Source: Aurantiacibacter atlanticus
GTDB lineage: Bacteria; Pseudomonadota; Alphaproteobacteria; Sphingomonadales; Sphingomonadaceae
Assembly: GCF_001077815.2 (NCBI RefSeq)
Contig: NZ_CP011310.1
Location: 1,302,001-1,366,000 of the forward strand
Direction of reading: 5' to 3'
DNA length: 64,000 bases
Notes under the pieces: model-generated
Seen by the model: only the letters and a program-made list of their open reading frames with translations
What the model was told of the DNA's origin: nothing
The model's database searches: none
Part shown: positions 30,806 through 39,238 of the stretch, in pieces
How positions within the stretch are numbered: the first letter of the stretch is position 1
Layout: each line of letters opens with the position of its first letter
Translations under genes and position numbers: made by a program

Positions 30806-31366
30806 ATGCGCATTTCTTCGATTTTCGCGGCGAGCTCGCTGCTGGTATTGGCTGCTTGCGGGGATTCGGGCACCGACGATGACCCCAGCGATCCGGATGA
30901 AGTCGCCGCTGCTGCCGAAACTATCGCCAAGCCACAACCCGGCCAATATCGCACGATCGCGGAACTGGTGGAGTTCGATATTCCCGGAGCCAGCGAGGAA
31001 GAAGTGCAGATGATGCGCGGCTTCGTGGAAAGCTCCGCTGCGCAGGAACAGACCTTCTGCATGACTCAGGAAAAAGCTGACGAAGGCTTTCAGGAATTCC
31101 TTTCTGCCATGCAGGACAATTCGGAAGAGTGCACTTTCAGCGAATTCAAGGTCGATGGCGAGGCGCTGGATGCCACGATGAATTGCGATGATGGTGCGGG
31201 TAGCAGCGGCACGATCACATTCGATGGCACGATTAGTGAAACGAAGCAGAACATGACCGTGACGATGGACATGAGCAATCCGGGTGAAGGCCAGTCCATG
31301 CGGATGGTGATGCGCAACACTACCGAGCGCACCGGAGAATGCACTGCAGAAGATGACGCTGCATAG
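30806..31366 (+). CDS. DUF3617 lipoprotein, first of three tandem paralogues
   Basis: A 186-residue probable lipoprotein with lipobox LAAC ending at Cys18 and then an Asp/Ser-rich linker. The DUF3617 domain begins at KPQPGQYRTIAELVEF and has the conserved cysteines in FCMT, ECTF and MNCD and the closing RTGEC. AAAGGG lies before the start. The biochemical function of DUF3617 is unknown. The next two genes on the strand are homologous. Confidence 0.82.
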   Translation: MRISSIFAASSLLVLAACGDSGTDDDPSDPDEVAAAAETIAKPQPGQYRTIAELVEFDIPGASEEEVQMMRGFVESSAAQEQTFCMTQEKADEGFQEFLSAMQDNSEECTFSEFKVDGEALDATMNCDDGAGSSGTITFDGTISETKQNMTVTMDMSNPGEGQSMRMVMRNTTERTGECTAEDDAA

Positions 31367-31520
31367 GGTCAGGGGTTTGCGACGGTCTGCACCACAATGG
31401 GACGCAGCCGCCAAACTCCGCGAATCAGGGGCTTTGGCGATTGGCAGGGCAGGTTGGCGGGTTTAGGATTATCCCAAGACCGGCGGCCCTCTTGTGCCGC
31501 AGATTTGCTGAGGAAATGCC

Positions 31521-32042
31521 ATGCGCCCGATCCATGCCCTGCCGCTGATTGCAGCCCTAGCGCTTGCCGCGTGCAATAATGACGACGACGAAGCCCTGAC
31601 AGACGAGGATCTGGCTGGCAGCACCATTCAGGATAACGGCGCCATGCCGCAGCCGGGCGAATATGCCACCACTGTCGAATTGATTGATTTCGTCGATCCC
31701 GATCTTGATCAAGCCACCATGGCCCGCGCCCGCAGCGAATTTGAAATTGGTGCAGCCGAACCCAGCCTGTATTGCGTGACGGAGGAAACCACGCGCGAAG
31801 TGTGGCTCTCTGACATGACGGAGGCTACATGCACGCTTTCACGTTTCACGGCGGATGGAAATTCGCTGGACGGGGCGATGACATGTTCATCGGATATTGG
31901 TCTTAACGGCCCCTTGGAGATGACTGGCACCGCTGGTGGCCAGAGCGCGGATCTGCGCATGAGCTATACCATGCCGGAAGATGCTGGTGCTGGCACCGTG
32001 ACCATGCGTGTGCTGTCGGAACGTATCGGCGATTGCAGTTAA
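31521..32042 (+). CDS. DUF3617 lipoprotein, second paralogue
   Basis: 173 residues with lipobox LAAC at Cys18 and an Asp/Glu-rich linker. The DUF3617 core opens with MPQPGEYATTVELIDF, closely parallel to the first copy. It has matching cysteines in YCVTEE, TCTLSRF and MTCSSD and ends RIGDCS. The TTGCTGAGGAAATGCC stretch before the ATG includes a good Shine-Dalgarno site. A 154-base gap separates it from the first copy, and 19 bases from the third. Confidence 0.82.
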   Translation: MRPIHALPLIAALALAACNNDDDEALTDEDLAGSTIQDNGAMPQPGEYATTVELIDFVDPDLDQATMARARSEFEIGAAEPSLYCVTEETTREVWLSDMTEATCTLSRFTADGNSLDGAMTCSSDIGLNGPLEMTGTAGGQSADLRMSYTMPEDAGAGTVTMRVLSERIGDCS

Positions 32043-32061
32043 CCTCGAAAAGCCTTGCCCA

Positions 32062-32610
32062 ATGAAGCGCGCTGCTTGGCAACTTGCTTCTTTGGCGCTC
32101 TTGCTGGGCGCAGCCTCTGCAGCATTTGCGGGGCAGGACGGCGCAGACATGGCCAAAAATGCGTCGGTAGCGGATGATCATTTATTTCCATGGCTGGAAT
32201 TTCTCGATGCAGAACCACGCCCGGGCCTTTATCAGGTAAGGTACGGCCTGGAGAATGCTCTCATTGCGGATTTTGACCCACGCAAGAATGGCGGCCCGTC
32301 GGACCCCTCCATGGACGAAGGTGATGTTGAATTCATCTGTCTTGATGAAGACACGCAGCGGGTCGATATGTTGGAAGAATTTGCTACCGGAGGCTGCACC
32401 ATGGGTGCCCTTGCCGGCGGGGCCGACGGCTTTACCGTCATGGCGCAATGCCGCGACCCGGACGGTCAGCATATGAGAATCCGCATGACCGGATCGGGTG
32501 ATGCAGAACATCTGCAAACTTTATTGTCGATGACCATGCGCAGCCCAGAAAGAGGCAAAATGGCTCTTGGCATTCGGGTGGAGCTAGAGCGGGTCGGCGA
32601 ATGTGAATAG
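32062..32610 (+). CDS. DUF3617-like secreted protein, third paralogue
   Basis: 182 residues with a cleavable signal peptide ending near AAFAG and no lipobox cysteine, unlike the first two copies. The core is more divergent: PRPGLYQVRYGLENALI, FICLDEDTQ, GGCTMGALAG, AQCRDPDG, and it ends ERVGECE. The cysteine spacing and the ending match DUF3617. The ATG at 32062 is 19 bases after the second copy, so co-expression is likely. Confidence 0.72.
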   Translation: MKRAAWQLASLALLLGAASAAFAGQDGADMAKNASVADDHLFPWLEFLDAEPRPGLYQVRYGLENALIADFDPRKNGGPSDPSMDEGDVEFICLDEDTQRVDMLEEFATGGCTMGALAGGADGFTVMAQCRDPDGQHMRIRMTGSGDAEHLQTLLSMTMRSPERGKMALGIRVELERVGECE

Positions 32611-32683
32611 GTTTCTCAATTGAGTTAAACTCTTCACGCCCTGACGAATTGCCCAGCCAAGCCGTTTCATATAATTATCAGTC

Positions 32684-33475
32684 ATGGATGCTGCATCCCC
32701 CCAATCAGAGCATGTCCTGGCGCGTTTACGTCAGTCTGTGCGAGCAGGCGTGTTTGCGCTGGCTAGGCGCCTTCGGCTGCTGCGCGGAACAATGCCGGAC
32801 AACGCCCATGCGCCGCCGTTGCGACTGCTGTTTGCAGAACTTGGCGTTGTGGCAGAGCCGGTGCGCCGCCGCTTGCGACCGCCCATACCTATCGAACCTG
32901 CGATTCATCCGCGTATCGTGATCCTGCTGCCCGGATTCGGCACCGGACCGGATCGGATGCGCTATCTGGCACAGCAGCTTGAGCGGGCGGGTCACACGGT
33001 GAAACGCTGGGGCATGGGCCATAATCTGGGCCCTACCCCAGAAACGCTGGAAGTGCTCTCGCAAAGAATCCGCGAGGTGCATGAACGGTATGGTGAGAAA
33101 GTGGTGCTGGTCGGGTGGAGCCTTGGCGGCGTGTTCGCCCGCGAAGTGGCCAAGGTCAGTCCTGAATTTATCGCCAAGGTTATTACCATGGGATCCCCGT
33201 TTAGCCACACACCCTATTCCAACAATGTCTGGCGTCCCTATCAGCTTGTGGCGGGCCACCCGGTGGAAAAGCCGCCGATCGAAGCCCAGCTGGGCGTAAA
33301 GCCGCCGGTTGAAACGGTAGCATTCTGGAGCCCGCGGGACGGTGTAATTTCGCGCCGGGCCGCATGCGGTGCGCCCGGTGAAAGGGACCGCGCTGTTGCG
33401 CTGCGCTGCTCTCACCTCACCTTTCCGACCGCTTCTGATTGCATATTGGCGCTTGTGCGGGAACTTGAAAGCTGA
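32684..33475 (+). CDS. Alpha/beta hydrolase
   Basis: A 263-residue hydrolase fold with PRIVILLPGFGTGPDRMRYL, an oxyanion-hole region, and the nucleophile elbow GWSLGG with Ser146. Candidate acid and base are in SPRDGVI and RCSHLTFP. It resembles lipase- or PGAP1-like esterases in general shape. A hydrophilic, Arg-rich first 70 residues lack a signal peptide, so it is probably cytoplasmic. The substrate is unknown. It is 78 bases upstream of the ATP-grasp gene. Confidence 0.78.
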   Translation: MDAASPQSEHVLARLRQSVRAGVFALARRLRLLRGTMPDNAHAPPLRLLFAELGVVAEPVRRRLRPPIPIEPAIHPRIVILLPGFGTGPDRMRYLAQQLERAGHTVKRWGMGHNLGPTPETLEVLSQRIREVHERYGEKVVLVGWSLGGVFAREVAKVSPEFIAKVITMGSPFSHTPYSNNVWRPYQLVAGHPVEKPPIEAQLGVKPPVETVAFWSPRDGVISRRAACGAPGERDRAVALRCSHLTFPTASDCILALVRELES

Positions 33476-33553
33476 CTAACCTTTGTAACAACAGACGCGG
33501 CGCAATAGCGCGAGGGGTTATTTTCTTATCGTGTCACATCAACAAAGGGTTTC

Positions 33554-34984
33554 ATGAGCGCGTCCGATAAGACGAATTTCGATGAGATGCATGCGCCCGA
33601 TGGTTCGGTGCGCAATGCGTATGACAGCTATCAGGAATGGCTTTCCGGCCAGGATGAAGGCTGGATGCGGCGCAAGAACTTTGAGGCGGAAAGCTTCTTC
33701 CGCCGCACTGGCATTACCTTCAATGTTTATGGTGAGGACGATGCCGAGGAGCGGCTGATCCCGTTTGACATGGTGCCGCGCATCATCACGGGCGCTGAAT
33801 GGCGCAGGCTTTCCAAGGGTATCGAACAGCGCGTGCGGGCTTTGAACGCCTTCATGCATGATCTGTATCACCGGCAGGAGATCATCCGGGCGGGCCGACT
33901 GCCAGAGCGGTTGTTCCGACATAACAAGGCATGGTTGCCGCAGATGGTCGGCTTCACCCCGCCGGGCGGGGTTTACACCCACATCACCGGCATCGACCTT
34001 GTGCGCACCGGCCCTGATGATTTCCTGGTGCTGGAAGACAATGCCCGCACCCCCAGCGGTGTTTCCTATATGCTGGAAAACCGCGAAACGATGATGGCGA
34101 TGTTCCCTGAACTGTTCAGCAAGGTGAAGGTGTGCCCCGTTTCCGATTATCCCCGCCGTCTGGCGAAAAGCCTGGCGGCCTGCGCGCCACCGAATGTGGA
34201 CGGCCCGCCCACGATTGCGGTGCTGACTCCGGGTATTTTCAATTCGGCTTATTACGAACACGCTTTTCTGGCGGACCAGATGGGCGCCGAGCTTGTCGAA
34301 GGTAGTGATCTTCGGGTCGTCAACGGCAAGGTCCAGATGCGCACCACGATGGGCTTCAAGCCGGTGGATGTCCTCTATCGTCGGGTCGATGACGAATATC
34401 TGGACCCGCTGACCTTCAATCCCGACAGTATGCTGGGTGTGCCCGGTATCATGGATGTTTACCGCGCGGGCGGCATCACCATCGCCAATGCGCCCGGCAC
34501 TGGCGTTTGCGATGACAAGGCAATCTATTCCTTCATGCCGGAGATCGTTGAATTCTACACTGGCGAAAAGGCGTTGTTGCCCAATGTCGAGACATGGCGT
34601 TGCGCAGATCCGGACTCCCTCAAATATGTGCTCGAAAATTTGAACGAACTGGTCGTTAAGGAAGTCCACGGTTCGGGCGGCTACGGCATGCTGATAGGGC
34701 CCACCGCAACCAAGAAGGACTTGCAGCAATTCCGCGCGAAGCTGAAATCCAATCCTGATAATTATATAGCTCAGCCAACACTGTCCTTGTCCACCTGTCC
34801 GATCTTTACCCGCAAGGGGCTGGCGCCGCGGCATGTCGATTTACGGCCATTCGTGCTGTCATCGCCTGAAGGCGTGGATATCACGCCTGGCGGATTGACG
34901 CGGGTCGCCCTGAAGCGCGGATCGCTTGTGGTGAATTCCAGCCAGGGCGGTGGCACCAAGGACAGCTGGGTGCTGGAAGACTGA
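33554..34984 (+). CDS. Circularly permuted type 2 ATP-grasp protein
   Basis: A 476-residue enzyme of the permuted ATP-grasp superfamily, expected to form amide bonds via an acyl-phosphate. Conserved segments are LVLEDNARTPSGVSYMLENR (about 158-177), NAPGTGVCDDKAIYSFMPE, VVKEVHGSGGYGML with the ATP-contacting lysine, and HVDLRPFVL. It is the first gene of a four-gene set with alpha-E, transglutaminase-like and Anbu genes. The family is linked by genome context to peptide synthesis or modification; the real substrate is unknown. Confidence 0.9.
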   Translation: MSASDKTNFDEMHAPDGSVRNAYDSYQEWLSGQDEGWMRRKNFEAESFFRRTGITFNVYGEDDAEERLIPFDMVPRIITGAEWRRLSKGIEQRVRALNAFMHDLYHRQEIIRAGRLPERLFRHNKAWLPQMVGFTPPGGVYTHITGIDLVRTGPDDFLVLEDNARTPSGVSYMLENRETMMAMFPELFSKVKVCPVSDYPRRLAKSLAACAPPNVDGPPTIAVLTPGIFNSAYYEHAFLADQMGAELVEGSDLRVVNGKVQMRTTMGFKPVDVLYRRVDDEYLDPLTFNPDSMLGVPGIMDVYRAGGITIANAPGTGVCDDKAIYSFMPEIVEFYTGEKALLPNVETWRCADPDSLKYVLENLNELVVKEVHGSGGYGMLIGPTATKKDLQQFRAKLKSNPDNYIAQPTLSLSTCPIFTRKGLAPRHVDLRPFVLSSPEGVDITPGGLTRVALKRGSLVVNSSQGGGTKDSWVLED

Positions 34985-35000
34985 TGGTGGAGCAACGCAT

Positions 35001-35945
35001 ATGTTAGGCCGCGTCGCAAATGGCATCTTCTGGATGTACCGCTATCTCGAACGGGCAGAAAATACTGCACGTCTTCTGGCGGCTGGGCAGCGCATGGCGC
35101 TGACGCGCGGCGATGATCATGCAGTGCAGGAATGGCGGTCTATCGTGACGACGCTGGGGCTGCGCAAATATTTCGAGCAGGATAGCGGCGAATATGATGT
35201 CGCCCATGTCTGCGATTTCGTATTGCGATCGAAGAGCAATCCCGAAAGCGTTCTGGCGATGACAGAGCGGGCTCGCACGAATGCGCGGATTTGCCGTTCG
35301 GCCATCACGCTGGAAGTGTGGGAAGCCGTCAATGAAGGCTGGATGGCACTTCGCGAGTTACTTGCAAAGCCGGTGCGCGAAAGCAATCTCAACCCGATCC
35401 TCGGCGCGATCCGTCGTGAAAGTTCCCTGGCGCGCGGGGCGACCCACGGCTCCATGCTGCGCAACGAAGCCTATTGGTTTTCTCGTCTGGGCACTTTTCT
35501 TGAGCGTGCTGACAGCACGGCGCGTATCCTCGACGTGAAATATTACCTGCTGCTGCCATCGCTTTCCTATGTCGGAACTCCGCTCGACAGCGGGCAATGG
35601 GATAGTGTTCTGCGCTCGCTGTCTGGTGACAGGGCCTATCGCTGGCTCAATGCCGGAAGGATGGATGCCCGCTCCATCGCCGATTTCCTGATCCTTGATG
35701 AACGCTTTCCGCGCAGCCTGACCTATTGCTATGCTACGGTACGGCAAAACCTCGATGAGCTTGCCCGTCTGCACGGTAGCGAAAGCACATCGCATGAAAT
35801 GATGCGCGCGGCCGATCTCGGGCTTACCAACAAGACGGTCGAGAATATATTCGATCAGGGCCTACACCAGTTTCTGCTCGATTTTATCGCCAGCAATCAA
35901 AAAGTCGCCGGCGCCATCGCTGAAGATTACCGTTTCACCTCTTAA
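35001..35945 (+). CDS. Alpha-E domain protein
   Basis: A 314-residue, mostly helical alpha-E domain protein starting MLGRVANGIFWMYRYLERAE. It carries RNEAYWFSRLGTFLERADSTARILDVKYYLL near the middle, typical of the family (core residues R, ER, A-D-x-T-A-R-I-L-D). ATG 35001 follows the ATP-grasp stop by 16 bases with GGTGGAG upstream. It is almost always found with this type of ATP-grasp and is thought to act with it; no catalytic function is established. Confidence 0.9.
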   Translation: MLGRVANGIFWMYRYLERAENTARLLAAGQRMALTRGDDHAVQEWRSIVTTLGLRKYFEQDSGEYDVAHVCDFVLRSKSNPESVLAMTERARTNARICRSAITLEVWEAVNEGWMALRELLAKPVRESNLNPILGAIRRESSLARGATHGSMLRNEAYWFSRLGTFLERADSTARILDVKYYLLLPSLSYVGTPLDSGQWDSVLRSLSGDRAYRWLNAGRMDARSIADFLILDERFPRSLTYCYATVRQNLDELARLHGSESTSHEMMRAADLGLTNKTVENIFDQGLHQFLLDFIASNQKVAGAIAEDYRFTS

Positions 35946-35963
35946 AGGAGAGGATTACAGACT

Positions 35964-36779
35964 ATGCGCCTCTCAATCCGCCACACCACGCGCTATCGCT
36001 TCACTGAACCTGTCTCCTACGGGGTCCAGCGGTTGCGGCTGACGCCCAAGGAAACGCAAGGGCAGAAGATACTCGAATGGGACATGGAATATGAGGGCGC
36101 GCACGAGGAACTGGTCTATGATGATCAGAACTTCAATCACACGACCTTCATCTCCGTAGAAGAAGGCGCGCAGGATGTTGTCGTCACGTGCAAGGGCCGC
36201 GTCGATACAGAGGACCAGGCCGGCGTCATCGGACAACATGCCGGACATTTGCCGCTATGGGCTTTTCTGGGGCAGACTCCGCTGACCAAACCCGGTCCCA
36301 AAATCAGGTCGTTGATTGGTAAGGTGGAACGCAGCGAAAGCATGGTCGATACCCTCCACAATCTCAGCAATGTCATCCGTGACCATGTCGAATATGGCGT
36401 AGGCACGAGCGGGGTTTCAACCACGGCAGAGGAGGCGGCGATCAATGCCTCAGGCGTTTGTCAGGACCATGCGCATATTTTTATCGCGGCTGCGCGCAGC
36501 CTGGAAATACCGTCTCGTTATGTAAGCGGTTATCTTATGATGAATGATCGCATTGAGCAGGAGGCCACCCACGCATGGGCAGAGGCCTATGTGCAGGGGC
36601 TGGGCTGGGTCGGCTTCGACATTTCCAACGGCATCAGCCCCGATCCACGGTATGTCCGTGTTGCAACGGGTCGTGATTACAGCGATGCAGCGCCGGTAAC
36701 AGCCATATCTTTCGGTGCCCAGACTGCGGACCTTGATGTAAATCTTGCTGTCGAACAGCAGATCATGGGGCAGCAGTGA
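35964..36779 (+). CDS. Transglutaminase-like cysteine peptidase/amidase
   Basis: 271 residues: an N-terminal beta domain of the bacterial transglutaminase type (about 1-85), then the papain-like transglutaminase core. The triad is visible as Cys166 (ASGVCQDHAHIF), His203 (ATHAWAEAYV) and Asp219 (GWVGFDISNG). It may cut or form isopeptide bonds. AAAGGAGAGG lies 11 bases before the ATG. It sits between the alpha-E and Anbu genes, which suggests action on the product of the ATP-grasp ligase. Confidence 0.9.
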   Translation: MRLSIRHTTRYRFTEPVSYGVQRLRLTPKETQGQKILEWDMEYEGAHEELVYDDQNFNHTTFISVEEGAQDVVVTCKGRVDTEDQAGVIGQHAGHLPLWAFLGQTPLTKPGPKIRSLIGKVERSESMVDTLHNLSNVIRDHVEYGVGTSGVSTTAEEAAINASGVCQDHAHIFIAAARSLEIPSRYVSGYLMMNDRIEQEATHAWAEAYVQGLGWVGFDISNGISPDPRYVRVATGRDYSDAAPVTAISFGAQTADLDVNLAVEQQIMGQQ

Positions 36780-36825
36780 TACGCCTTGCACGTATCTGAA
36801 CTTTTCGCAGTTTTAGAGGAAATAC

Positions 36826-37581
36826 ATGACTTATTGCGTTGGGATGGTTCTGGACAAGGGCCTCGTTTTGATGAGCGATACGCGAACCAATTCGGGTGTC
36901 GACAACATTTCTGTTTTTCGCAAGATGTTCACCTGGACGGTCCCGGGAGAGCGGATCATATCGGTGATGACGGCGGGCAACCTTGCCACGACGCAGGCGG
37001 TCATCAGCCAATTGCAGGAACGCACAAAGGCACCCGAAGAACGCCAGCACGGATTGCTGGAACTGCCGACCATGTTTCAGGTGGCCGTGGAAACAGGCAA
37101 GCTGCTGCGCGAGGTCATCAGTGCCACCCAAACCGATAATGGCACGCGCGGTAAAGGTCGCTTCACGGCATCAATCATCCTTGCCGGCCAGATCAAGGGC
37201 ATGGAGCCACGCCTGTTCATGATCTATCCGGAAGGTAATTTCATTGAAGCCAGCTTCGACACTCCATTTTTCCAGATTGGCGAGACGAAATATGGCCGGC
37301 CGATCATCCTGCGCGGTTATGAAAGAACGATGAGCTTTGAGGATGCAGCAAAATTGCTGATGGTGAGCTTCGATTCAACCTTGAAGGCCAATCTGTCAGT
37401 TGGCCTTCCGCTGGATCTCATGGTGATCGAACGCGATACATTTGCCCCGCTGCATGAACGGCGGATCGAACACAGTGACCCCTATTTCGATGCGATTTCG
37501 AACAGTTGGAGCGAGGCATTGCGAAGCGCCTTTCATTCGCTCCCGGATTATAGCTTTTACCAACCGGATGAAACTACCTAG
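36826..37581 (+). CDS. Anbu, proteasome-like N-terminal threonine peptidase
   Basis: A 251-residue Ntn-hydrolase of the Anbu (ancestral beta-subunit) group, related to HslV and proteasome beta subunits. After Met removal the N-terminus is Thr1 (MTYCVGM), with Asp17 and Lys32 in the catalytic places (SDTRTNSGVD, FRKMFTW). GERIISVMTAGNLATTQAV and RPIILRGYERTMSFEDAAKLLMVSFDST are family-typical (only cores quoted). AGAGGAA precedes the ATG. Anbu rings are known structurally but their substrate is not. No unfoldase such as HslU is in the window. Confidence 0.93.
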   Translation: MTYCVGMVLDKGLVLMSDTRTNSGVDNISVFRKMFTWTVPGERIISVMTAGNLATTQAVISQLQERTKAPEERQHGLLELPTMFQVAVETGKLLREVISATQTDNGTRGKGRFTASIILAGQIKGMEPRLFMIYPEGNFIEASFDTPFFQIGETKYGRPIILRGYERTMSFEDAAKLLMVSFDSTLKANLSVGLPLDLMVIERDTFAPLHERRIEHSDPYFDAISNSWSEALRSAFHSLPDYSFYQPDETT

Positions 37582-37586
37582 TCGCG

Positions 37587-37602
37587 CGGTCCGATCGGAC
37601 CG
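37587..37602. promoter_or_regulatory. 16-bp palindrome just after anbu
   Basis: CGGTCCGATCGGACCG begins 5 bases past the anbu stop. The half-site TCCGATC recurs at 37609 and 37650. There is no T-run, so an operator cluster is at least as likely as a terminator. It lies in the 190-bp gap before the FixJ-type regulator. Confidence 0.45.
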
Positions 37603-37719
37603 GAAAGTTCCGATCAGAATTATCCCGTAGCTGCATCGCGGATAAATGGTCCGATCCGGTGATAACTTTTTCGCGGTTTCCTGCCATTCCTCGGGAAAGG
37701 GGCGGCGCAATAGGTGGAC

Positions 37720-37737
37720 TTCCGTAGTAATACGGAA
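37720..37737. promoter_or_regulatory. Inverted repeat upstream of FixJ-type regulator
   Basis: TTCCGTA-GTAA-TACGGAA, perfect 7-bp arms and a 4-base centre, 35 bases before the regulator start. Size and symmetry fit binding of a LuxR-type dimer, so autoregulation is an attractive guess. Confidence 0.45.
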
Positions 37738-37772
37738 TGTAAAATGCACGATCCTCAGCCAGTACCAGTTTC

Positions 37773-38462
37773 ATGGAAAAACGTATTACGATACATATTG
37801 TCGGCGGCGACAGCCGCTCGCGCGCGTTACAATCGCGCCTCGCCCTTTCCATGGGTTGTCATGCGGAAGTTTATTCGGACCTGATCGAATTGCTTGACCG
37901 TCCGCCGCAGGATGGCGTTATCATTGCATCGGATGTCGTCATTGAAGACGGCATCGGAGCGCTTCTGGAAAAACTTGCCGATCACGGGATCTGGATACCG
38001 CTGGTAGCGGCGCGTGAAGAGCCGAGTCTGGAAGAGGTCGTTCACGCAGTTCAGGCGGGGGCGCTCGATTTCCTGACCTTGCCCCTTACCGAGGGAGAAC
38101 TGCGCCGGATGATCGCGCATTACCATTCAGATTCGGGCCAACATGCCGAAGCGCGCCGCCGGCTGATCGATGCCCGCAATCGCATAAATGAATTGTCTCG
38201 GCGCGAGCGCGAAGTGCTGGATTGGTTATCCGAAGGGCGCTCGAACAAGGCCATTGCGCGCGAACTCGATATCAGTCCGCGTACGGTAGAAATTCATCGC
38301 GCCAACATGATGGAAAAGCTTGGTGCCAACCATGCAGCCGATGCTGTGCGCATGCGCATGGATGCAGCATTGCGGGACCCAGTGGCCAAAACCCGCGAGG
38401 TGGTGCCCGGCCTGCATACCGACGTCAGTTCTGCGCCATCGCCGACGGCTACGTCGGGCTGA
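37773..38462 (+). CDS. FixJ/LuxR-type regulator with degenerate receiver
   Basis: 229 residues: an N-terminal receiver-like domain (1-115) and a LuxR-type helix-turn-helix (about 140-195, LSRREREVLDWLSEGRSNKAIARELDISPRTVEIH; core GRSNKxIARxL). Asp54 is in the phospho-acceptor place. The usual acidic pair reads Gly11-Gly12-Asp13, and the conserved lysine before the late proline is Leu103. Phosphorylation is therefore doubtful. It follows the Anbu operon on the same strand; regulating that operon is a context guess. Confidence 0.85.
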   Translation: MEKRITIHIVGGDSRSRALQSRLALSMGCHAEVYSDLIELLDRPPQDGVIIASDVVIEDGIGALLEKLADHGIWIPLVAAREEPSLEEVVHAVQAGALDFLTLPLTEGELRRMIAHYHSDSGQHAEARRRLIDARNRINELSRREREVLDWLSEGRSNKAIARELDISPRTVEIHRANMMEKLGANHAADAVRMRMDAALRDPVAKTREVVPGLHTDVSSAPSPTATSG

Positions 38463-38530
38463 TCCGGCCCCAGCACAGACTTACAGAGTTTCCCCCCGGA
38501 AAGGCGGCCCAGCGATGGGTCGCCTTTTCG

Positions 38531-39238
38531 CTATCGACAATAGGACGAGCCGCTGCTGACACCTTCAACGTGGAAGTGATCACGGTGGGCCGCATTGTAA
38601 TCCGGCCCCAGAACAGTGCCGAAGCGAAGACAGGCGCTGCGTTGCACGGTGCGCAGGAATTCACGCTCCTTGCTGGAACCATTCCAGCCCGAATGCACGC
38701 TGATCCGCGTTCCGTCAGACAGAACAAATCCACCGACATCAATGGCATCAGCACTGGCATGGGCTGAACGCCGTCCAGTGCCCGCGACATTACGGCATGA
38801 ATAGCTTCCCATCGTCTGGATGGACTGGATCGGCACACCGAAAACCTGCCGCGCCGCACGATCAACACCATATCGTGCCCATGCCGCAAAGGCTGTGCTG
38901 ACAGGGCAGGTGACCGGCCCCAGATTGCCAACTTCAAACCGGCCGTAATCACCCTGCAAGGCATGCATCTGCACCGTGTTGAGCGTGCTGCAACCGTGAT
39001 CGGCATAGCGATCCGGCAAGGCATCGAACTGTGCACCAGCGGCGCCAAGCTGGGCCAGGCATTGCGCTTCGGCACCACGCCGAACGATTGGCGCTGAATT
39101 GCTGATGCGCGATGAGGAGGCTGTATTGCGCGAATCATGGCTATCGCGCTGGGGACTGCCATTCGGAAGGACCGAACAGCCCGCCAAGGCGAGAGTGCCA
39201 AGTCCAAGGGTAAGGGCACGTTTCATCACGATTTTCAT
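38531..39238 (-). CDS. Extensin-like C-terminal domain lipoprotein
   Basis: 235 residues with a lipoprotein signal, lipobox LAGC at Cys21 (a Met four codons in is an alternative start). The family-typical domain contains CRNVAGTGRRSAHASADAIDVGGF and NAAHRDHFHVE (motif cores H-A-x-A-D-A-x-D and H-x-D-H-F-H). This pattern resembles the zinc sites of M15/LAS-type D-Ala-D-Ala peptidases, so a cell-wall role is likely. It converges on the regulator gene with 68 bases between stops. Confidence 0.85.
   Translation of the reverse strand: MKIVMKRALTLGLGTLALAGCSVLPNGSPQRDSHDSRNTASSSRISNSAPIVRRGAEAQCLAQLGAAGAQFDALPDRYADHGCSTLNTVQMHALQGDYGRFEVGNLGPVTCPVSTAFAAWARYGVDRAARQVFGVPIQSIQTMGSYSCRNVAGTGRRSAHASADAIDVGGFVLSDGTRISVHSGWNGSSKEREFLRTVQRSACLRFGTVLGPDYNAAHRDHFHVEGVSSGSSYCR

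What the first reader, a model, noticed from the sequence alone, without database searches (positions are those of the whole stretch)
33554..37581. ATP-grasp / alpha-E / transglutaminase-like / Anbu operon: a putative peptide-tagging and proteolysis system
Four genes run in one direction with gaps of 16, 18 and 46 bases. They encode an amide-bond-forming permuted ATP-grasp, its alpha-E companion, a Cys166-His203-Asp219 transglutaminase-like enzyme and an N-terminal-Thr peptidase (Thr1, Asp17, Lys32). All catalytic residues look intact. The association is known from comparative genomics, but substrate and product are, to my knowledge, unresolved. I infer that the ligase builds or attaches a short peptide or isopeptide mark, and that the transglutaminase and Anbu process it.
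Basis: partly seen in the sequence, partly recalled or inferred. Interest (0 to 1): 0.75.

Follow-up and report, generated by a model that had tools for sequence, protein, structure and literature searches.

The report
Known four-gene Anbu operon, intact
This is an intact copy of a widespread bacterial gene cassette that pairs a proteasome-like enzyme with an amide-bond-making enzyme; the cassette is already known but its job is not, and the evidence here and in print leans towards nitrogen economy more than protein tagging.

Summary
In detail: permuted ATP-grasp (33554-34984), alpha-E (35001-35945), transglutaminase-like (35964-36779) and Anbu (36826-37581) run on one strand with gaps of 16, 18 and 46 bases, catalytic residues intact. 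It is a canonical Anbu operon, already in print with crystal structures (PMC5666114, PMC6376114): a new member of a known kind. What I add: (1) Anbu depends on the other genes but not the reverse: in 219 Pseudomonadota genomes 84 of 85 with Anbu also have alpha-E, while 45 of 129 with alpha-E lack Anbu; a sister cluster fuses ATP-grasp and alpha-E. The core is therefore the ligase module, with Anbu an optional hydrolase. (2) Alpha-E, with no solved relative found, looks like an internal duplication with two 'LERA' helices. (3) In one genome the operon runs straight into urease genes, in another it follows a urea-transporter operon; with the published NtrC dependence in Burkholderia and nitrogen-limitation induction in Pseudomonas this favours nitrogen scavenging. 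Against it: the window's genome has no urease or UrtA match and no sigma-54-like site upstream, and 80 further neighbourhoods showed no urea genes beyond one UrtE-like match. 'Tag and degrade' remains untested.

The parts
33554..34984 (+). circularly permuted (type 2) ATP-grasp ligase, 476 aa
   Evidence: PF14403 1.7e-163, PF04174 8.7e-143; solved homologue 3n6x, E 2.5e-190
35001..35945 (+). alpha-E protein, 314 aa, all-helical; two halves (1-153, 154-314) that resemble each other, each with an (Y/F)LERA(E/D) helix
   Evidence: PF04168 1.7e-83; AlphaFold2 mean pLDDT 89; HHalign of halves prob 95.4, score 54.6, controls at most 38.0
35964..36779 (+). transglutaminase-like cysteine enzyme, 271 aa, C166-H203-D219
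   Evidence: PF08379 + PF01841; solved homologue 3isr, E 1.5e-16; triad conserved
36826..37581 (+). Anbu proteasome-like Ntn hydrolase, 251 aa, Thr directly after Met1
   Evidence: 5loy 3.6e-85, 5nyj 2.8e-71, 5nyf 1e-70, 5nyw 4.8e-65, 5lox 1.6e-61; T1, D17, K32 in 78 of 78
32684..33475 (+). alpha/beta hydrolase 78 bases upstream, same strand; possible further operon gene in this lineage (not part of the general cassette)
   Evidence: PF00561 1e-8; just upstream in 56 of 76 testable loci
37773..38462 (+). LuxR/FixJ-like regulator downstream; possible local regulator, link not tested
   Evidence: PF00196 4.1e-23, no Response_reg match at 1e-3; within 1 kb downstream in 53 of 69 testable loci

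Best explanation
A canonical Anbu operon. Shown here: the four families, their order, the intact active sites, and the dependence pattern (Anbu almost never without alpha-E; alpha-E often without Anbu). Inferred: the working core is an ATP-grasp/alpha-E complex that activates a carboxylate as acyl phosphate and joins it to an amine, with alpha-E, a pseudo-twofold helical protein with two charged helices, holding one of the substrates. The transglutaminase-like Cys-His-Asp enzyme then transfers or hydrolyses the amide, and Anbu, where present, hydrolyses a downstream product. The cycle serves nitrogen salvage or redistribution under nitrogen limitation rather than marking proteins for destruction. 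The substrate is not known.
For: Families and residues. Core partnership: ATP-grasp and alpha-E occur in the same 36 of 118 genomes of the order; eight of them carry a second copy with both in one open frame (seven of 831-853 aa, one of 1174 aa), and the 120 best of 7465 homologues of one such protein (from L083) are all listed with both domains. Asymmetric dependence: 84 of 85 against 84 of 129. Nitrogen: in a B. cenocepacia ntrC mutant the DUF404/407, DUF403 and two TG genes fall 6- to 9-fold (PMC5491218, passages); PP_2686-2688 rise 11- to 15-fold in N-limited wild-type P. putida (PMC7801951, passages), and PP2685 (Anbu) to PP2687 rise in PMC3325844 (passage); co-variation with urea-metabolism domains in unstandardised marine metagenome networks (PMC3597751, passages); continuity with urease genes in L107 (2-base gap) and with urtABCDE in L108. 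Alpha-E duplication. ATP-grasp phosphate release: PMC6376114.
Against: No substrate or product is known. The window's genome has no urease or UrtA match, and no sigma-54-like site lies upstream. Urea adjacency is rare: 80 alphaproteobacterial Anbu loci fetched (one) had no urea gene beyond one UrtE-like match. In PMC7801951 the Anbu gene PP_2685 itself changes only 1.12-fold in wild type and the three core genes are still induced in an rpoN mutant, so sigma-54 is not needed there. The Caulobacter NtrC preprint (PMC10274813, passages) mentions no ATP-grasp or proteasome gene although Caulobacter has alpha-E. The co-occurrence odds ratio with urease (4.75; catalase control 1.98; urease against catalase 2.85) is not corrected for phylogeny or genome size. 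Alpha-E halves match over 121 columns in this type, but only over the 20-column ER helix in the fused type. PMC5666114 argues for proteolysis and against a peptide-synthesis role. Spending ATP under nitrogen starvation needs a reason not yet given.
Confidence: 0.4

Rival explanations
1. Peptide tagging and proteolysis (the first reader; also proposed in print according to PMC6376114): ATP-grasp and TG attach a short peptide mark, and Anbu removes it or degrades the marked protein.
For: Two candidate amide-bond enzymes beside a proteasome relative with intact Thr1; PMC5666114 reports proteasome-inhibitor binding.
Against: No activity on proteasome substrates and no complex with partners detected in PMC6376114; Anbu absent in 45 of 129 genomes with alpha-E; no AAA+ family in the ten neighbouring ORFs scanned.
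Confidence: 0.2
2. Biosynthesis of a peptide or amide metabolite (proposed by Iyer 2009, known here only from citing papers): the core makes a small compound, and Anbu processes a precursor.
For: Glutathionylspermidine-synthase label on the close ATP-grasp relative 3n6x; fused and unfused core versions without Anbu; in one fused cluster (L083) the neighbours are DUF2126 'putative amidoligase' and N-formylglutamate amidohydrolase.
Against: Among 86 Anbu neighbourhoods no clear additional partner recurs: the largest extra cluster covers 18 loci at scattered positions, family not identified.
Confidence: 0.25
3. Anbu is a nitrogen-starvation peptidase of its own, and the other three genes form a separate function that merely shares regulation.
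For: 21 of 86 alphaproteobacterial Anbu genes have none of the three genes upstream; Anbu lies more than 10 kb from the listed alpha-E in 8 of 86 cases of the phylum sample and on another contig or without it in 7; in Azospirillum it sits alone among amidase and ABC-transporter genes.
Against: 84 of 85 Anbu genomes still carry alpha-E somewhere.
Confidence: 0.13

Closest known systems
Anbu operon (PMC5666114, PMC6376114 read in part; Valas and Bourne 2008 and Iyer 2009 known only as cited there)
   Same: Same four families, same order, same Anbu catalytic residues
   Different: Nothing in the genes themselves; local flanks (alpha/beta hydrolase upstream, LuxR-type gene downstream) belong to this lineage
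Nitrogen-regulated DUF404/407-DUF403-TG clusters (P. putida PP_2685-2688; B. cenocepacia I35_5080-5083)
   Same: Same core families; PP_2685 is described as similar to the 20S proteasome beta subunit
   Different: No sigma-54-like site upstream in the window; I35_5083 is described as a large protein containing a transglutaminase-like domain, and no Anbu is named in that cluster
Fused ATP-grasp/alpha-E cluster with DUF2126-TG, TG and FGase (L083)
   Same: Same core domains
   Different: Ligase and helper in one chain, no Anbu match in the 16-kb stretch, ATP-grasp about 33% identical to the window's
Pup-proteasome / ubiquitin-proteasome systems (recalled)
   Same: A ligase and a proteasome-fold hydrolase in one system
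   Different: No AAA+ family in the ten neighbouring ORFs scanned; no tag or protein adduct shown

Membership tests
Anbu operon | ATP-grasp, alpha-E, TG-like, Anbu in this order on one strand | tested here: met
Anbu family | Thr1 directly after Met, Asp17, Lys32/33 | tested here: met
   T1, D17, K32 in 78 of 78; the five best solved relatives are all Anbu
Anbu family | open, lock-washer-like multimer | not testable with these tools
   no assembly prediction run
Circularly permuted ATP-grasp (PF14403) | full-length profile match | tested here: met
   profile positions 1-374 of 374, 1.7e-163
Alpha-E (PF04168) | all-helical domain with conserved ER motif | tested here: met
   E17-R18 and E168-R169 invariant; helical model
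Transglutaminase-like superfamily | Cys-His-Asp triad | tested here: met
   81 of 81, 81 of 81, 80 of 80
NtrC/sigma-54 regulon | -24/-12 site upstream of the first gene | tested here: not met
   best window match 6 of 12; 0 of 71 loci of the sphingomonad set (window included) reach 10 of 12, where random windows reach it in 2.6%
Tagging-proteolysis (Pup-like) system | AAA+ unfoldase encoded beside the operon | tested here: not met
   none among ten ORFs of 30806-39238 scanned; the rest of the genome was not searched
Tagging-proteolysis (Pup-like) system | covalent protein adducts | not testable with these tools
   needs mass spectrometry

The most novel reading that the evidence does not exclude
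The Anbu operon is a nitrogen-salvage amide cycle: the ATP-grasp/alpha-E complex loads a nitrogen compound onto a carboxylate carrier, and the TG-like enzyme and Anbu release the nitrogen again for assimilation. A proteasome relative proposed as ancestral would then be a dedicated amidohydrolase of nitrogen metabolism, which would explain why it can sit in one unit with urease genes and has no unfoldase beside it.
Probability: 0.2. Interest if true: 0.8.

Novelty: new member of a known kind. Interest (0 to 1): 0.4.

Why it matters
Anbu has been proposed as a relic of proteasome origins, yet the published studies read here report no known function and no measured activity on proteasome substrates. 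If the ligase module is the core and Anbu an optional amidase of nitrogen metabolism, assays with 20S-proteasome peptides tested the wrong substrates, and the fused ATP-grasp/alpha-E protein offers a single-chain enzyme to assay. The urea-linked loci give concrete genetic settings in which to test the idea.

Tried and rejected
Urea adjacency as a general rule: rejected. In the phylum sample 4 genomes (G136, G163, G306, G249) have urtA or ureC within 12 kb of alpha-E, out of 64 (UrtA) and 70 (UreC) genomes carrying both; four related genomes have UrtA at 29-33 kb. My estimate of chance for 12 kb is about 0.4, not simulated. But the 80 Anbu loci fetched for one search gave none with UreC or UrtA, and one with a UrtE-like match only (L150).

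Sigma-54 scan: my first two scans (the promoter part) forced the -12 GC to the wrong spacing and are withdrawn; one search is the corrected scan. It gives 0 of 71 loci of the sphingomonad set at 10 of 12 or more, and 3 of the other 33 (L099, L104, L109; expected about 0.9 from random windows). L099 is from the window's own order.

'TGA inside Anbu' in three genomes: in the two read (L093, L094) it is only the normal stop codon.

Hand-typed tables: the presence lists and positions were typed. From the alpha-E positions I left out most fused copies and many genomes without Anbu or urea genes, and cut its own list, so distances are upper bounds. Dropped as weak before counting: 13 of 101 urease matches, 69 of 149 UrtA matches (below the curated cut-off), 10 of 88 catalase matches. 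G133's Anbu (2e-40) belongs to a weaker group but was counted among the 85.

the 80 fetched loci come from 73 genomes, 11 of which were also in the phylum sample; several are cut short by contig ends. From I did not fetch the 19 weak matches, G000, G019, G025, G012 (same genus or family), G148 (already held) or G592 (partial); G276 was added. Six loci held earlier were added to make 86. In one search one Anbu and three LuxR sequences held a stop letter in the aligned stretch; it was read as X and not looked into.

Literature: Iyer 2009 was not held. Valas and Bourne 2008, Vielberg 2018, Hervas 2008 and 2009 were not opened; known only from citing papers. PMC3169532 and PMC3710099 turned out to be off the point. 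I cannot claim that the alpha-E duplication is unpublished. The Anbu-urease linkage did not show in the searches.
Full report
OBSERVATION. Pfam assigns each to its family. Solved relatives exist for the ATP-grasp (3n6x, 2.5e-190), the TG (3isr, 1.5e-16) and Anbu (5loy, 5nyj, 5nyf, 5nyw, 5lox), none by sequence for alpha-E (nothing better than E 0.6). The named residues are present. Promoter-like and terminator-like patterns in 33300-38600 do not exceed the shuffled expectation (2 against 3.5; 5 against 5.1), so a single transcript is plausible but not shown.

CONSERVATION. A scan with alpha-E alone found 88 relatives and kept the best 80 loci, mostly sphingomonads with some Rhodobacterales and Maricaulis. 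All 80 hold ATP-grasp and TG sequence, and 77 Anbu in the same order. Catalytic residues are invariant. Median gaps over these loci, with starts taken from the alignment, are 16, 14 and 48 bases (the gap part of that call is not touched by the promoter-scan error).

DEPENDENCE. In 118 genomes of the window's order, ATP-grasp and alpha-E occur in the same 36, TG in 35, Anbu-like matches in 31. Four of those 31 are only 28-31% identical and lie in genomes without the core. Nine core genomes lack an Anbu match (G002, G005, G014, G023, G031, G039, G044, G047, G062). S. meliloti has the three genes on a plasmid and no Sinorhizobium record is among the 27 plasmid records matching Anbu. In 219 Pseudomonadota genomes, alpha-E occurs in 129, Anbu in 85, both in 84. 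Of 86 Anbu genes there, 57 have alpha-E within 2.5 kb upstream on the same strand, 3 within 2.5 kb otherwise, 11 at 2.5-10 kb, 8 further, 7 on another contig or without it. In 86 alphaproteobacterial loci, 52 have all three partners upstream, 10 ATP-grasp and alpha-E only (a divergent TG may be missed), 21 none, 3 other mixtures. The natural reading is a ligase core with Anbu as an accessory.

FUSED SISTER CLUSTER. Eight genomes of the order carry a second copy in which one open frame holds ATP-grasp and alpha-E: G002, G005, G039, G044, G047, G062, G105, G110. L083 shows it with a TG-DUF2126 protein of 1059 aa, a TG of 305 aa and an N-formylglutamate amidohydrolase. The 120 listed homologues of the fused protein, of 7465 found, carry both domains. 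Fusion is good evidence that the two proteins work together.

ALPHA-E. AlphaFold2 gives an all-helical model, mean pLDDT 89. Profile comparison of the N-half (1-153) with the C-half (154-314) gives probability 95.4 and score 54.6 over 121 columns; one reversed and 19 block-shuffled controls reach at most 38.0. The motif YLERAENTARLL (15-26) returns as FLERADSTARIL (167-178). In the fused type only the 20-column ER helix matches (score 23.0, 20 controls at most 14.7), and cross-comparisons between types are weak. I take alpha-E to be an old internal duplication with two charged helices that could frame one substrate site. This is an inference; no structure shows it.

NITROGEN. Published: in a B. 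cenocepacia ntrC mutant the genes for DUF404/407, DUF403 and two TG-domain proteins fall 6- to 9-fold (PMC5491218, passages); no Anbu is named in that cluster. In N-limited wild-type P. putida PP_2686, 2687 and 2688 rise 12.6-, 11.0- and 14.7-fold while PP_2685, the Anbu gene, changes 1.12-fold; the three are still induced in an rpoN mutant (14.2, 16.0, 19.6), and the authors call the operon likely NtrB/NtrC-controlled (PMC7801951, passages). PMC3325844 lists PP2685 at 11.1 and 4.0 in its two nitrogen-limited comparisons (table passage). COG3484 is listed in a sigma-54-linked group enriched in Proteobacteria (PMC12316311, passage), and the domains go with urea metabolism in unstandardised marine metagenome networks (PMC3597751, passages). 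The Caulobacter NtrC preprint shows only a different transglutaminase homologue, hvyA (PMC10274813, passage).

Here: in L107 (genome G163) ATP-grasp, alpha-E, TG, Anbu, ureD, Urease_beta, Urease_alpha, UreF and a UreG-like gene lie on one strand (with unidentified ORFs among the urease genes), and two bases separate Anbu from ureD. In L108 (G306) urtABCDE precede the ATP-grasp on the same strand by 318 bases, and ureD and urease alpha lie beyond urtA on the other strand. In L109 (G136) ATP-grasp and alpha-E, without a TG match, precede urtAB, with an oppositely oriented RhuM-family gene between. Co-occurrence odds ratios with alpha-E: urease 4.75, UrtA 4.55, catalase (control) 1.98; urease against catalase gives 2.85, so genome size or lifestyle explains part; not corrected for phylogeny. 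Against this, no urea gene but one UrtE-like match lies in the 80 Anbu loci fetched, and the window's own genome has neither urease nor UrtA. So urea itself cannot be the general substrate; nitrogen stress is the better common denominator.

REGULATION IN THE WINDOW. The sigma-54 gene is present in 115 of 118 genomes of the order, the window's included, but no sigma-54-like site precedes the operon in the 71 loci of the sphingomonad set, the window included. One other genome of the order (L099) has a 10-of-12 site 62 bases upstream. The NtrC link is therefore not shown for this lineage.

PUBLISHED BIOCHEMISTRY. [quoted passage not shown] PMC5666114 (passages; section 14): inhibitor binding and ring geometry taken to favour proteolysis; physiological substrates unknown. 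PMC8665760 (passages): no function known for Anbu.

VERDICT. An ordinary, intact member of a known and unexplained cassette. Interest 0.4: the general question is old, and the evidence here (dependence pattern, fused core, duplication in alpha-E, urease-linked loci) sharpens what to test.

Noticed in passing
32684-33475: Alpha/beta hydrolase 78 bases upstream on the same strand, conserved in 56 of 76 testable loci. A hydrolase also precedes the operon on a Klebsiella plasmid (L105), but the two share no significant similarity.
   Followed up: partly
37773-38462: LuxR/FixJ-like regulator whose N-terminal half does not match the Pfam receiver domain at 1e-3, conserved just downstream in 53 of 69 testable loci; may be a degenerate receiver.
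   Followed up: partly
30806-32610: Three DUF3617 genes in a row on one strand.
   Followed up: no
L095-L098; G133, G456, G532 and others: Two sets of weaker Anbu-like matches: four in the order at 28-31% identity, in genomes without ATP-grasp or alpha-E, and 18 class genomes at about 1e-40 (G374 at 1e-33). Perhaps another proteasome homologue; not shown to be one group.
   Followed up: partly
L107:6293-10426: Anbu and urease accessory gene ureD two bases apart on one strand, urease beta and alpha following.
   Followed up: yes
L105:6810-10747: The full four-gene operon on a plasmid typed conjugative (Klebsiella), so the cassette may move between strains.
   Followed up: no
L106:10001-10735: Solo Anbu in Azospirillum among amidase, amidohydrolase, hydroxyisourate hydrolase and ABC-transporter genes.
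   Followed up: no
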